Source: an uncultured Clostridia bacterium (GTDB lineage: Bacteria; Bacillota; Clostridia; Christensenellales; Borkfalkiaceae). Taken from it: 59,633 nucleotides of DNA. Made by a program: the position numbers and the translations under genes. The notes below the pieces were generated by a model that did no database searches, was not told the origin of the DNA, and worked only from the letters and a program-made list of their open reading frames with translations. Every line of letters begins with the position of its first letter. Within the stretch, counting starts at the first letter, position 1. The stretch spans positions 1-59,633 of the forward strand of contig CALVPY010000014.1 in assembly GCA_944354535.1 (NCBI GenBank), read 5' to 3'. Positions 51,466 to 55,010 of the stretch are shown one piece after another.

Positions 51466-52670
51466 ACCCTATCCTGAAACGCACCGTCCCCAAATTCGCC
51501 CTGTTCCTGGGCGGCATCCTGCTGTTCGCCTTCTTCTCCAACGACTTCGGCCTCATAGACATCCAGAAGGCGGCCATCATCCTGGCGGCGGGCATCGATA
51601 AGACCCCGTCCGGATACGAGCTGACCGCGCAGATCTCCGTGCCGAAGGGCGGCGAAACGGCGGGCGGCACGGCGAGCGTGGAACTTTCGGGACGCGGAGA
51701 GACGGTAGCAGACTGCCTCATGATGATGTATGCAGATTCGGGCTGGGTCCCCAAGTTCGATTTCTGTTCCCTCGTCCTGCTCGGCGAAGAGACGGCAAGA
51801 GAGGGCGCCATGCCCGCGCTCAACTACTTTTTGCACAACGAATATATGTCGGACGACTGCGCCGTTGCCGTCTGCGAAGGGAGCGCCGCCGATGTCCTGA
51901 AGCAGACGAGCTCCATTGACGACACGTCCTCCCTTGCCATCGGCAAACTCTTCTCGGGCGCGGCGGAAAAGTCGGGCGCGACCGTCAAGAATACGCTCCG
52001 CAAGTTCGCCGTAGACACGCTGGGCGTCTCAAAGAGCTCCTTCATGCCCTATATCCGCACCCTGGCTCTCGAACAGGACAACCCCTCCGAAGGCGGCAAA
52101 GAAGCCCCCGGGGGAGGCGCAGGAGAAAGCAGCGCGGACAAAAGCGAGAAAAGCTCGCAGCAGGAGAGCGTGCTCTTCCGCGCCGAGGAGACCGCCCTCT
52201 TTGCGGAAGGGAAGATGACGGGGCTGCTCTCCGCCGAAGAGACCTTCGCCTACAACCTGCTCATGGGCGGCGTAAGTGCGGGCAGCCTCACCGTCCGGGG
52301 CGAAAACGGGCTGCCCGTCTCCCTCAGCATCAAGCGGGATCGGGGTAAAGTGACGCTTTCGAACGACGCCCTGCCGCAGGCGCAGCTCGAGATCGGGCTG
52401 AAGGTACTCGTCAATGACCGCACCGCGGAAGATTTCATGGCGGGGACGGAGACCAACGTCGCAACGCCCGTAGACGAACGCTGCGCCGAGGAGCTGATCG
52501 CCTCCCATGCCGCCTCGCTTTGGGAAACGTGCAGAAAAAGCGGGTGCGATCTCTTTCTGCTTTCGCGCGATCTGTGGCGGAGCGATCCCAAACGGCACGC
52601 CGGGCTCAAAGACAGCATCCCCTCTGCGGTCGAAGCAAAGATCGTTGTCCGCGTGCGCGGGGCAAAATAG
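51462..52670 (+). CDS. gerKC: Spore germinant receptor subunit C (GerKC family), no lipobox Cys
   Basis: 402 residues. The family start 'IDIQKAAIILAAGIDKTPSG', followed by 'DFCSLVLLGEETAREG', matches Ger(x)C proteins. The usual lipobox (LxxC next to 'WDRREL') is missing: the N-terminal helix 'FALFLGGILLFAFFSNDFG' has no Cys, so the protein is probably held by an uncleaved membrane anchor. A Ser/Glu/Lys-rich linker at about 205-235 breaks the domain. AGGAGG overlaps the end of gerKB. Last gene of the operon. Confidence 0.88.
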   Translation: MNPILKRTVPKFALFLGGILLFAFFSNDFGLIDIQKAAIILAAGIDKTPSGYELTAQISVPKGGETAGGTASVELSGRGETVADCLMMMYADSGWVPKFDFCSLVLLGEETAREGAMPALNYFLHNEYMSDDCAVAVCEGSAADVLKQTSSIDDTSSLAIGKLFSGAAEKSGATVKNTLRKFAVDTLGVSKSSFMPYIRTLALEQDNPSEGGKEAPGGGAGESSADKSEKSSQQESVLFRAEETALFAEGKMTGLLSAEETFAYNLLMGGVSAGSLTVRGENGLPVSLSIKRDRGKVTLSNDALPQAQLEIGLKVLVNDRTAEDFMAGTETNVATPVDERCAEELIASHAASLWETCRKSGCDLFLLSRDLWRSDPKRHAGLKDSIPSAVEAKIVVRVRGAK

Positions 52671-52731
52671 CTTTCCTGCCGGGCATCGAATAAAAAATCG
52701 GGAAACAGCCAAAAAATTTTTCCCGAAACGC

Positions 52732-52759
52732 TTGACAAAATACAAATCTGTGTTATAAT
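52732..52759 (+). promoter_or_regulatory. Strong sigma-A promoter of the large ncRNA
   Basis: Perfect -35 TTGACA (52732-52737) and perfect -10 TATAAT (52754-52759) with a 16-nt spacer. It is the only promoter in the window on the plus strand with both consensus hexamers, and no coding frame follows it. Confidence 0.88.
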
Positions 52760-52765
52760 GTAGAC

Positions 52766-53302
52766 AAGAAAGAGAAAGAAACACACAAACAAAGTTTCTT
52801 TCTCACAAATAACCGCAAGGGGACTACTCCAATGTGCACGTAAATCGATGCAACTTTAGGGCAATCTCACAAGGAAGGAAAGACCAATGCACAATTAACG
52901 CAATAACTTCAGAGGCGGAAATTGAAATAGCGAGGGCTACTCCAATGACCATGTGACCCAAGTGGCAAAGGCTGGCGGGGAAAGCAGGCTGACCCCGCAA
53001 AACGGAGATTCTGCTCCGAGAAAATCTCATATCGGGAGGTACGCTTGATATGACTAACTTCATTCCCCGTGAGGCGAGGAAGATCTCGGATAAGGAGGAC
53101 AGACCAACGTACAATTTCACCGAAGGGGCGCAAAGCTGATCGGATGAACGGGACTTGAAACGATCGACCTGACTGATCGTACCGGAAGTTTGATTCCACA
53201 TTGAGTTCAAGCCGAGAAGCGCCATACATGGCCCGCCCCGGTAACAACTGAATTTTGGCAAATGATTTCTCCTCCGTGCTTCTGCACGGAGGAGCTGTTT
53301 TT
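52766..53302 (+). ncRNA. Large structured non-coding RNA candidate, about 537 nt
   Basis: Between a perfect promoter and a strong terminator there is no plus-strand reading frame worth calling, but many helices: 52772-52782 with 52794-52804 (11 bp); a closing helix 52812-52815 plus 52819-52821 with 53236-53242; 52975-52980 with 52993-52998; 53003-53007 with 53014-53018; 53028-53033 with 53047-53052; 53075-53078 with 53085-53088; and a three-way junction at 53151-53213 (53154-53159 with 53206-53211; 53160-53165 with 53175-53180; 53184-53187 with 53194-53197). CTACTCCAATG occurs twice (52824, 52937), and so does AGACCAA-YGYAC-AATT (52881, 53101). Size and style fit large ornate bacterial RNAs (OLE, ROOL, GOLLD class), but I cannot assign it to a known family. 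Confidence 0.75.
53269..53302 (+). terminator. Terminator of the large ncRNA
   Basis: 11-bp perfect GC-rich stem (53269-53279 with 53284-53294), TTCT loop, then CTGTTTTT. Confidence 0.93.
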
Positions 53303-53757
53303 GTCGTTTCGCGGGGGCGGGGGCTTTACCCCCCCCTTTTTCGCTTGGCGGCGGGGAGATGTTTTTTGTTGTTTTCGAGGCGAGGGCTTTGCCGCCCCTT
53401 TTTCGCTTGGCGGCAGGGAAAAAATTTTTCGCGCTCCCCTATTTTTCCTTCTTTGGGCGAAGAGCGAACGATTTGCCTCCCCTTTTCGAGGCGAGGAGCG
53501 AGCGATTTGTCTCCCCTTCTGTCCGGCGGCTGGGGGATATTTGGTGTTTTGTCCCCCTCCCCTTTTCGGGGAAGGGAGAAGCGTTTTCCGGAGACGAAGA
53601 AAAGGAGTTGGAGTTTTGGGCAAAACAAGAGACCTGCTTCAAGCGGAAACGAACCCGAAAAAATCAAGGCGACTCCTTCCGCCGCGCGCCCGCGAGAGCG
53701 GGCGCGCGGCACCTCCCTCAGAGAGGGAGGCACGGGGGTGCTTGCCCGCCCCTCAGA
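53303..53757. repeat. Degenerate repeat tract downstream of the ncRNA
   Basis: No gene is supported in these 455 nt. Two copies of a block ending TTTTTCGCTTGGCGGC lie about 72 nt apart (near 53336 and 53398). A second pair has the core GAGCGA-R-CGATTTG-Y-CTCCCCTT (near 53461 and 53495). Near the end are hairpins of the CGCGCGCCCGC and CCTCCCT...AGGGAGG type (53688-53733). Open frames through here are low-complexity and run in several frames at once, so they are not credible proteins. Confidence 0.5.
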
Positions 53758-54291
53758 TCAGATGCGCTCGGAAGTAAGAAGATCGCTGCCGCGTTCTAAG
53801 ATATTGGCGAGTTTTTCCTCCGTCTCATCGATGACGGGCAGCAGAGCCTTCGTTTTTTTGGCGGCGAGTCTCTTGTAGATCGGATAGTTGACGCTGCAGA
53901 GGACGATCCCTATGAGCCCCAGCACGATGCCGCCGGCAAACGCGGGAACGCTGCCCTCGACGAGCATACAAAGACACATCCCGCCGCCCAGCACGAGCGC
54001 CGCGATACACCCGAAGATATAGGAGAACACGCTTGCCCCCAGCGTCTTGGAACGCTCGAGCCCGCCAATACAGGCGAACGTATCCTCCGCCTGGCGCTCA
54101 AGCTTCACAAGCTCCTGCTTATGGGGAATGTGCCGGTCACGCTTCAGGGAGAGCGTAACGCCGTCGAGCGCGGACGACGTACCCGTCACTTCCCAGCCGA
54201 ACGCCTCGTACATATCCATCGCTTTCGCCTGATCCTTCTCTTTTACCGACACCGTCCTGTATTCATAGGATACAAAATCTTTTTCCTGCAT
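53758..54291 (-). CDS. Small two-helix membrane protein of unknown function
   Basis: 177 residues. The soluble N-terminus of about 90 residues ('YEYRTVSVKEKDQAKAMDMY', 'EAFGWEVTGTSSALDG', 'DRHIPHKQELVKLERQ') is followed by two hydrophobic helices (about 93-117 and 121-141) and a charged C-terminal helix. This layout occurs in uncharacterised Firmicute proteins. GAGAGG precedes the ATG. It is transcribed divergently from a TetR-family regulator 185 nt away, which may control it. Function unknown. Confidence 0.72.
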   Translation of the reverse strand: MQEKDFVSYEYRTVSVKEKDQAKAMDMYEAFGWEVTGTSSALDGVTLSLKRDRHIPHKQELVKLERQAEDTFACIGGLERSKTLGASVFSYIFGCIAALVLGGGMCLCMLVEGSVPAFAGGIVLGLIGIVLCSVNYPIYKRLAAKKTKALLPVIDETEEKLANILERGSDLLTSERI

Positions 54292-54348
54292 AAAAGTTAC
54301 CTCTCTTTGTGGAATTTTCCCGCGGAAAAATGCCGACGCGCGTTTCGG

Positions 54349-54377
54349 TTGACTTTTCCGTAAGACAGGTGTATCAT
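54349..54377 (+). promoter_or_regulatory. Sigma-A promoter of the TetR-family gene
   Basis: -35 TTGACT (54349-54354), 17-nt spacer, -10 TATCAT (54372-54377). A short palindrome GTATCATAC (54371-54379) covers the -10 and could be an autorepression site. Confidence 0.65.
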
Positions 54378-54476
54378 ACCATCATCGGCGATAAAATAGC
54401 AATCGTCCGAACGGGCGATAAGACAGTAACGTCCATTCTGTCGCCGCAAATGAAACATACAGGGGGAATTTGTCTC

Positions 54477-55010
54477 ATGCAATACGCACAGCCTGCACCC
54501 GAAGACTACACGCGGCACTACATCGTAACGGCGCTTTTCAAGCTGATGCACGAATATGAATACGAAAAGATCGCCGTCACCGACATCGTCCGAAAAGCAG
54601 GGGTGGGACGGGCGACCTTCTACCGCTACTTCAGAAGCAAAGAGGACGTCATTATCTATTATTTCGAGCACAATACGCGCGAATTCGTCTTTGCCCGCCG
54701 CATCTATCCCCGCTGCAGAGAGGACTACGTTCAGATAGTGACCGATGTTCTCGCCATGTTCCAAAAACAGAAAGAGCCGTTCAAGCTGATAAAACAGGCG
54801 CATCTGAGCGATCTCTATCTCGATTTCCTCAATCAGAATTTTGTACGCACCTTTGAAGAGGAACACCCCGGAGAAAACCCCTATCTTCCCTATCTTTATG
54901 CAGGGATGCTGTATAATGTCTCGATGAAATGGTTAGAGGGCGACTGCCGCGAGAAGATCGGCTTGCTTGCGGAGCTCATTGTCGATGCCATCTATACGCG
55001 GGAAGTGTAA
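54477..55010 (+). CDS. TetR/AcrR-family transcriptional regulator
   Basis: 177 residues from the ATG at 54477 (AGGGGG upstream). The helix-turn-helix is clear: 'ITALFKLMHEYEYEKIAVTD'-like opening (here VTALFKLM) and 'VTDIVRKAGVGRATFYRYF' followed by 'RSKEDVIIYYFEHN'. The ligand-binding part is helical, with 'GMLYNVSMKWLEGDCREK', typical of the TetR_C group found near efflux genes in Clostridia. Probably controls itself and the divergent membrane protein gene. A longer frame reaches back to 54309 through the promoter and is not used. Confidence 0.9.
   Translation: MQYAQPAPEDYTRHYIVTALFKLMHEYEYEKIAVTDIVRKAGVGRATFYRYFRSKEDVIIYYFEHNTREFVFARRIYPRCREDYVQIVTDVLAMFQKQKEPFKLIKQAHLSDLYLDFLNQNFVRTFEEEHPGENPYLPYLYAGMLYNVSMKWLEGDCREKIGLLAELIVDAIYTREV

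What the first reader, a model, noticed from the sequence alone, without database searches (positions are those of the whole stretch)
52732..53302. Orphan large structured RNA with its own strong promoter and terminator
About 537 nt free of plausible ORFs are bounded by perfect -35/-10 boxes and a perfect terminator. Many helices can be drawn, including a long-range closing helix (52812-52821 with 53236-53242) and a three-way junction. The base composition is more AT-rich than the neighbouring genes. It stands alone between a germination operon and a repeat tract. It may be a member of the large ornate RNA classes or a new one.
Basis: partly seen in the sequence, partly recalled or inferred. 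Interest (0 to 1): 0.88.

Follow-up and report, generated by a model that had tools for sequence, protein, structure and literature searches.

The report
Free-standing structured RNA carrying mini-genes
A family of gut bacteria has an undescribed, free-standing gene for a folded RNA that does not look purely non-coding: it carries a chain of extremely short genes (2 to about 14 codons) behind ribosome-binding sites, so RNA folding and translation seem to be built into one regulatory molecule whose target is still unknown.

Summary
The observation mostly holds: window 52732-53302 is an isolated transcription unit with a 12/12 promoter, a strong terminator and more structure than shuffles; no Rfam family matches. 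It is a conserved gene: copies lie in 95 of 103 genomes of its genus (probably Candidatus Gallimonas); a broader model matches 197 of 350 genomes of its family (weak rows not inspected), with no convincing match in samples of order and class. 'Free of ORFs' is wrong. Homologues carry mini-ORFs behind Shine-Dalgarno sequences: ORF1 (mostly 2-6 codons), ORF2 (8-14), ORF3 (9-13), the ORF2 stop usually 15 nt before the ORF3 start. Stops fall in frame far more often than in other frames. In one sister genus the ORF2 peptide MY(R/K)SDLRKLA is under strong purifying selection (pN/pS 0.10); in the window's own genus peptide constraint is weak. In the window ORF2 and ORF3 are fused and a part is duplicated. 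Neighbours change, so it is not a simple cis leader. Best reading: a trans-acting dual-function RNA in which ribosomes on the mini-ORFs open or close a folded 3' domain. Conservation and architecture are well supported; translation, output and target are inference.

The parts
52732..52759 (+). sigma-A-type promoter, TTGACA-16-TATAAT, TG before the -10
   Evidence: 12/12 match; 12/12 in 77 of 89 homologous copies
52767..53302 (+). predicted transcript, about 536 nt (start inferred from the -10 box, not observed)
   Evidence: promoter and terminator; homologues
52772..52804 (+). 5' hairpin, arms 52772-52782 and 52794-52804, 11 perfect pairs
   Evidence: arm-swap test in 89 copies, 0 of 1000 swaps reach the own score
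52832..52843 (+). mini-ORF1 ATG TGC ACG TAA (MCT*), Shine-Dalgarno-like AAGGGG at 52817-52822
   Evidence: counterpart picked in 78 of 89 copies (one of them, 28 codons, a mis-pick), stop within codons 2-15 in 77 of 78 against 20 and 22 in the other frames
52887..52898 (+). mini-ORF MHN*; looks like a decayed duplicate of the ORF3 start region
   Evidence: direct repeat D2; second R2 model match at 52842-52929, E 0.006
52945..52956 (+). mini-ORF MTM*, duplicate of the ORF1 start region
   Evidence: direct repeat D3
53028..53052 (+). hairpin CATATC / GATATG with the Shine-Dalgarno GGGAGG (53034-53039) in the loop and the ORF2 start codon in the 3' arm
   Evidence: arm-swap test in 88 copies, 0 of 1000
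53050..53139 (+). ORF2 and ORF3 fused in frame, 29 codons: MTNFIPREARKISDKEDRPTYNFTEGAQS*; two separate ORFs in most relatives
   Evidence: separate ORF3 in 83 of 89 copies; SD of the former ORF3 at 53092-53098, its start is ACG at 53107 here
53125..53130 (+). 5' strand of the long-range closing helix of the 3' domain (GGGGCG), inside the ORF3 part
   Evidence: arm-swap test in 67 copies: own 16.47, swapped 15.06, 0 of 2000
53234..53239 (+). 3' strand of the closing helix (CGCCCC)
53244..53253 (+). conserved 3' motif ACAACTGAAT just upstream of the terminator
   Evidence: pattern found in 73 of 89 copies; terminator within 90 nt in 72 of these 73
53269..53302 (+). intrinsic terminator

Best explanation
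The locus is a free-standing gene for a structured RNA that also carries a chain of ultrashort ORFs meant to be translated, found in one family of gut Clostridia. Shown by sequence comparison: own promoter and terminator; covarying helices; Shine-Dalgarno-led mini-ORF1 (mostly 2-6 codons), ORF2 (8-14) and ORF3 (9-13) with conserved stops; ORF2 stop typically 15 nt before the ORF3 start; last codons of ORF3 forming one strand of the helix that closes the 3' domain; purifying selection on the ORF2 peptide in a sister genus. Inferred: ribosomes initiate on ORF1 and ORF2, and a ribosome that ends at the ORF2 stop covers the ORF3 ribosome-binding site, so ORF3 translation is coupled to ORF2. Translating ORF3 opens the closing helix of the 3' domain; without it the domain folds. 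The RNA would thus be a ribosome-driven switch whose output, the 3' domain (with its conserved ACAACUGAAU end) and/or the ORF2 peptide, acts in trans, because no neighbouring gene is constantly placed under its control.
For: Homologues in 95 of 103 genus genomes, 57 of the 60 good ones, and R2 matches in 197 of 350 family genomes. Frame test: stop within codons 2-15 in frames 0/1/2: ORF1 77/20/22 of 78, ORF2 83/52/15 of 89, ORF3 83/56/39 of 83 (the picker did not ask for a stop). ORF2-ORF3 spacing of 15 nt in 69 of 83. In the window and four other distinct copies ORF2 has lost its stop, ORF3 its start codon, and the two are fused in frame. Sister genus g29, 34 copies: ORF2 pN/pS 0.10, differences by codon position 14/9/41, p 5e-7; ORF3 pN/pS 0.46, p 0.006. 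Covariation by swapping arms between species: closing helix; 5' hairpin, SD-loop hairpin, upstream element and inner helix; three control pairings are flat. Changing neighbours and orientations.
Against: No RNA or ribosome data exist here; translation is not observed. In the window's own genus peptide constraint is weak (ORF2 pN/pS 0.51, ORF3 0.75; third-position excess p 0.057 and 0.13), and in the first 15 g29 copies ORF3 stood at 0.87 (7 pairs), so ORF3's peptide may not matter. The start codons and Shine-Dalgarno sequences counted are partly built into the pickers. ORF1 was not picked in 11 of 89 genus copies and no 5'-proximal ORF1 was seen in the 15 g29 copies scanned. L088 has lost the ORF3 ATG without fusing. 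The copies are related; neither the frame test nor the swap tests correct for that. RNAalifold on the poor full alignment gave only a fragmentary consensus. The ribosome switch and any trans target are untested.
Confidence: 0.5

Rival explanations
1. A purely non-coding structured RNA (OLE/ROOL/GOLLD style); the Shine-Dalgarno and ATG motifs are structural elements and the ORFs are incidental.
For: Folding better than shuffles; covarying helices; weak peptide constraint in the window's genus.
Against: In-frame stops in 77 of 78, 83 of 89 and 83 of 83 ORFs against far fewer in the other frames; ORF2 pN/pS 0.10 with third-position excess p 5e-7 in g29; in-frame fusion in the window's clade; no Rfam match.
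Confidence: 0.13
2. A transcription-attenuation leader: leader peptides plus terminator regulate read-through into a downstream gene such as spoIIE.
For: Leader-peptide-like ORFs ahead of an intrinsic terminator; spoIIE-like ORF downstream on the same strand in 36 of 89 copies.
Against: A spoIIE-like ORF lies upstream on the other strand in 17 of 89 and was not seen in 36 of 89 flanks; the nearest called downstream ORF is on the same strand in 35, opposite in 26, none called in 28 of 89; in the window the next long ORF (53758-54291) is on the opposite strand; in other genera the context changes.
Confidence: 0.12
3. A tiny polycistronic mRNA whose released peptides are the product; the RNA folds only serve stability and translation control.
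For: ORF2 peptide MY(R/K)SDLRKLA under purifying selection in 34 sister-genus copies; precedent for a leader peptide acting in trans: peTrpL (PMC7298713, start of abstract seen in the listing).
Against: ORF1 products of 2-5 residues are unlikely to be products (inference); ORF2 and ORF3 peptides differ greatly between genera; the 3' domain after ORF3 is structured with covarying helices.
Confidence: 0.18
4. A sponge RNA: for the GGA-binding regulator CsrA (as CsrB), or for 30S subunits / anti-Shine-Dalgarno sequences.
For: Many GGA/AGGAGG motifs, one of them in a hairpin loop.
Against: CsrA (PF02599) matches in 0 of 37 genus genomes searched; 3 of 14 control genomes, E. coli, B. subtilis and T. 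maritima, do match. Pure SD titration does not explain conserved stops, the 15-nt spacing or peptide selection.
Confidence: 0.06

Closest known systems
Dual-function bacterial sRNAs (SR1, SgrS, RNAIII; recalled) and sRNA-encoded peptides (PMC5521070, abstract and outline seen)
   Same: Free-standing transcript, RNA structure plus a Shine-Dalgarno-led small ORF under selection.
   Different: Here a chain of two to four ORFs, mostly of 2-14 codons, with fixed spacing and one ORF forming a strand of the 3' domain; the known ones carry a single longer ORF (recalled). PMC5521070 speaks of ORFs of 10-50 amino acids (abstract).
peTrpL / rnTrpL of Sinorhizobium meliloti (PMC7298713, start of abstract in a search listing)
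   Same: A leader peptide that acts in trans.
   Different: peTrpL comes from a trp attenuator (its length of 14 residues is recalled); here there is no constant downstream operon and there are several mini-ORFs.
Minigenes / two-codon mini-ORFs (axe-txe, PMC8708949, abstract seen)
   Same: ORF1 is mostly 2-6 codons behind a ribosome-binding site; in axe-txe distance and reading frame to the next cistron matter.
   Different: The axe-txe minigene acts in cis on a toxin gene; here the next cistrons are themselves mini-ORFs and no larger gene follows on the predicted transcript.
OLE, ROOL, GOLLD large ornate RNAs (PMC12286853, abstract seen)
   Same: Free-standing structured bacterial RNA of a few hundred nt.
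   Different: No match to any of 4227 Rfam models; mini-ORFs with conserved frames; relatives as short as about 310 nt to the 3' motif.

Membership tests
OLE / ROOL / GOLLD large ornate RNAs | match to the family covariance model | tested here: not met
   cmscan at gathering thresholds over the whole window: 0 matches; at E up to 10 over 52600-53450 only PyrR, ncr1241, Pedo-repair and Bp1_684 at E 1.5-9.9
OLE / ROOL / GOLLD large ornate RNAs | forms RNA-only homo-oligomers | not testable with these tools
   needs native gel or cryo-EM
Dual-function sRNA | free-standing transcript with own promoter and terminator | tested here: met
   sequence signals only, no RNA data
Dual-function sRNA | small ORF under coding selection | tested here: met
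   frame test; ORF2 pN/pS 0.10 in the sister genus; in the window's own genus 0.51 and not significant by third positions
Dual-function sRNA | the small ORF is translated | not testable with these tools
   no ribosome or peptide data
Dual-function sRNA | regulates RNA targets by base pairing | not tested
   no target search was done; ACAACTGAAT is a candidate segment
Cis transcription attenuator / leader peptide | constant downstream gene on the same strand | tested here: not met
   nearest called downstream ORF same strand 35, opposite 26, none called 28 of 89
CsrB/CsrC-type CsrA sponge | host encodes CsrA | tested here: not met
   PF02599: match in 0 of 37 genus genomes
tmRNA or 6S RNA in disguise | takes the place of the standard RNA | tested here: not met
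   6S and tmRNA genes lie elsewhere in the window's genome; 6S in 13 of 13 genomes searched (8 over the cut-off), tmRNA in 12 of 13 (11 over the cut-off)

The most novel reading that the evidence does not exclude
A new class of regulatory RNA: an autonomous 'ribosome relay' in which two to four consecutive mini-genes of 2-14 codons, coupled by fixed spacings, convert translation status (or a nascent 10-residue peptide) into the folding state of a 3' RNA domain that acts in trans.
Probability: 0.3. Interest if true: 0.92.

Novelty: new variant of a known kind. Interest (0 to 1): 0.8.

Why it matters
ORFs of 2-14 codons are below the length limits of gene finders (general knowledge), and RNA-family searches treat such loci as non-coding. 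This family gives more than 100 natural variants (89 in the genus; 34 in a sister genus) in which start, stop, spacing and RNA helices can be read together, plus a 10-residue peptide with a clear protein-coding signature. If the coupling reading is right, it is a free-standing RNA device that reports on translation. It also marks a highly conserved, apparently undescribed gene in animal gut Clostridia, next to germination and sporulation genes in much of the window's genus.

Tried and rejected
Rfam: hits to PyrR, ncr1241, Pedo-repair and Bp1_684 at E 1.5-9.9, far below their gathering scores, are taken as chance. The first DNA search gave 12 of 61 genomes, the own one included; L012 is a polyphosphate-kinase-like gene (by eye) and was dropped. 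Order-level R1 hits L050, L052, L053 and L055 look like ordinary genes or their flanks (by eye). L050 begins like ClpC and resembled ORF3, but the Clp starts printed for the genus do not look like it, so that idea was dropped. Four genome contigs pattern hits (L146, L147, L170, L176) lie in other sequence; the other 31 of 35 are in Clostridia records, of which only L171 and L177 were read. R2 in the order: 5 hits outside the family at E 0.001-0.009 among 396 genomes, not fetched. R2 in the class: 18 hits outside the order among 391 genomes, the best five fetched; none has a promoter above 9/12 nor an ORF2-ORF3 chain. No exact match of one pattern in viral contigs; no blastn match in phages or plasmids. 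CsrB-like sponge rejected; 6S/tmRNA replacement rejected. RNAalifold on an alignment of 42 short copies and of 37 3' domains gave fragmentary consensus structures, so arm-swap tests were used. nhmmer with a 3-sequence profile printed no hits.

Full report
What was claimed.

Check of the observation. The promoter (TTGACA-16-TATAAT, 12 of 12, with TG) and the terminator (11 pairs, T run) are there. The 538-nt transcript folds at -164.8 kcal/mol, z -3.5 against 100 dinucleotide shuffles; 14 chosen relatives, taken without their terminator and against 40 shuffles each, have a mean z of -3.3, from -0.4 to -7.6. G+C is 48.3% against 62.2% for gerAC. Rfam gives no match at gathering thresholds over the window and only chance-level matches at E up to 10 over the element.

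It is a conserved gene. A DNA search of 61 genomes found two full-length relatives at 86-87% identity and diverged ones. A 112-position model of the core (R1) finds it in 95 of 103 genomes of the genus, and in 57 of the 60 that are at least 90% complete and at most 5% contaminated; each has one strong copy except G004 with two (three others have a second match at E 0.006-0.009). A broader model (R2) matches 197 of 350 genomes of the family, 10 of 18 genera, at E up to 0.01. E-values of both models are rough, and many weaker rows (E above about 1e-4) were not inspected, so the genus count is an upper figure. Of 40 loci fetched outside the genus, 30 have a 12/12 promoter upstream, 3 have 11/12 and 7 have 8-10/12, some of them at contig ends; the mini-ORF chain is clear in g29 and g26 and in g128, plausible in g28, and uncertain in g134 and g27. 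In 396 genomes of the order and 391 of the class no convincing match lies outside the family; the best five class-level hits were read and lack the promoter and the ORF2-ORF3 chain. The genus is probably Candidatus Gallimonas: record L177 bears that name and holds a close relative of the window's copy. The family name Borkfalkiaceae (GTDB) is recalled. The name of the window's own genome was not given.

Anatomy across 89 distinct copies of the genus. Promoter 12/12 in 77, 11/12 in 11, one truncated. Length from predicted start to the 3' motif is 307-848 nt in the 73 copies in which the motif pattern was found. A terminator follows within 90 nt in 72 of those 73; in the other 16, terminator-like sites were found within 900 nt downstream, for L114 only at 525 nt and beyond, and some of the 16 have variants of the motif. 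The common order is: 5' hairpin; ORF1 behind a GG-rich Shine-Dalgarno-like sequence with CC(A/G) before the ATG; structured element; a hairpin with the Shine-Dalgarno sequence in its loop and the ORF2 ATG in its 3' arm; ORF2; ORF3 behind AGGAGG...CC(A/G)ATGTAC; 3' domain; ACAACTGAAT; terminator.

The mini-ORFs are conserved as reading frames. A stop falls within codons 2-15 in frames 0/1/2 for ORF1 in 77/20/22 of 78, ORF2 in 83/52/15 of 89 and ORF3 in 83/56/39 of 83. The pickers asked for a start codon and an SD-like sequence, not for a stop; the copies are related, so the counts are not independent. ORF1 is often MDRKA*, MNR*, MHK* or MHN*, 72 of 78 having 2-6 codons. The ORF2 stop lies 15 nt before the ORF3 start in 69 of 83 copies, 12-19 nt in another 13, and overlaps in one. 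In the window and four other distinct copies (L002, L003, L018, L023) the ORF2 stop and the ORF3 start are both gone and the two are one 29-codon ORF; L088 has lost the ATG without fusion. The window's clade also has a duplicated ORF1-type and ORF3-type start region (repeats D2 and D3; extra model match at 52842-52929).

Peptide selection. In the window's genus constraint is weak: ORF2 pN/pS 0.51 (30 disjoint pairs), ORF3 0.75 (34 pairs), third-position excess p 0.057 and 0.13. In sister genus g29 a first set of 15 gave 0.18 and 0.87 on 7 pairs each. With 34 of 35 copies the ORF2 peptide is MY(R/K)SDLRKLA or close to it, pN/pS 0.10 over 16 disjoint pairs, codon-position differences 14/9/41, p 5e-7; ORF3 has pN/pS 0.46, 21/21/38, p 0.006. 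In g26 ORF2 was 0.63 (4 pairs) and ORF3 0.69 (5 pairs). So in at least one genus a gene of about 10 codons is under clear protein-level selection.

RNA structure. Arms of each helix were swapped between species. For the helix between the last codons of ORF3 and the segment before ACAACTGAAT, the own score is 16.47 and the swapped mean 15.06, sd 0.25, reached by 0 of 2000 swaps in 67 copies. Compensatory examples are GAGGC/GCCTC in L111 and GGGAC/GTCCC in L108; some copies (for instance L042, L078, L090, L113) pair poorly there. These tests do not model the tree. Individual folds show, by eye, a closing helix, an inner helix and two hairpins, that is a three-way junction, in several of the 8 copies printed.

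Context. A gerAC-like ORF lies upstream on the same strand in 57 of 89 copies and downstream on the opposite strand in 13; 19 show none within the fetched flank. A spoIIE-like ORF is downstream on the same strand in 36 and upstream on the opposite strand in 17. The nearest called downstream ORF is on the same strand in 35, opposite in 26, and none was called in 28. In other genera some copies still follow gerAC (L215, L225, by eye), others sit beside unrelated genes. A fixed cis target is therefore unlikely. CsrA matches in 0 of 37 genus genomes, 6S RNA and tmRNA are present separately, and the phage and plasmid collections hold no blastn match.

Mechanism. Shown by sequence: Shine-Dalgarno-led starts with conserved in-frame stops, a preferred ORF2-ORF3 spacing, overlap of the ORF3 end with a covarying long-range helix. 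Inferred: translation itself, coupling from ORF2 to ORF3, opening of the 3' domain by ribosomes on ORF3, and a trans output by the RNA or by the ORF2 peptide. I give about 0.5 to the dual-function, ribosome-controlled reading as a whole. That the locus is a conserved transcription unit with mini-ORFs that are translated I hold at about 0.85.

Literature. In eight searches no listed paper, judged by title and start of abstract, describes such an RNA in this group; long result lists were cut, and the library lacks most subscription journals. Abstracts and outlines of PMC5521070, PMC8708949 and PMC12286853 were seen (PMC12286853 was found); PMC7298713 was seen in a search listing only.

Noticed in passing
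window 53303-53757: G+C-rich tract with recurring GGCGGGG-like and CCCCTTTTTCGCTTGGCGG-like units and further terminator-like hairpins just downstream of the RNA.
   Followed up: no
L030 and L041, 3' half of the element: Two copies are about 850 nt to the 3' motif, more than twice the shortest copies, with the extra length after ORF3; origin of the expansion unknown.
   Followed up: no
G004: L009 and L037: The only genus genome with two strong copies, of different lineages; a true second copy or assembly contamination (4%).
   Followed up: no
L024, L026, L027, L031, L032, L035, L036, L038, L040, L057-L059, L061, L062, L064, L085: In this clade the ORF2 nucleotides TTCATTTCCCAAGGATTGAAGATTTCG are almost frozen, also at synonymous sites, and the usual CATATC/GATATG hairpin is changed.
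   Followed up: partly
G063, G064, G066, G091, G100, G031, G115, G124: Eight of 103 genus genomes gave no R1 match; three of them (G064, G091, G115) are at least 90% complete and at most 5% contaminated. G064 has a weak R2 match, E 0.0036. Loss, divergence or gap not resolved.
   Followed up: no
window 53758-55010: A small membrane-protein-like ORF (- strand) and a TetR-like regulator (+ strand), names by eye, lie between the RNA and spoIIE; homologues beside the RNA were seen in only 3 and 2 of 89 copies.
   Followed up: partly
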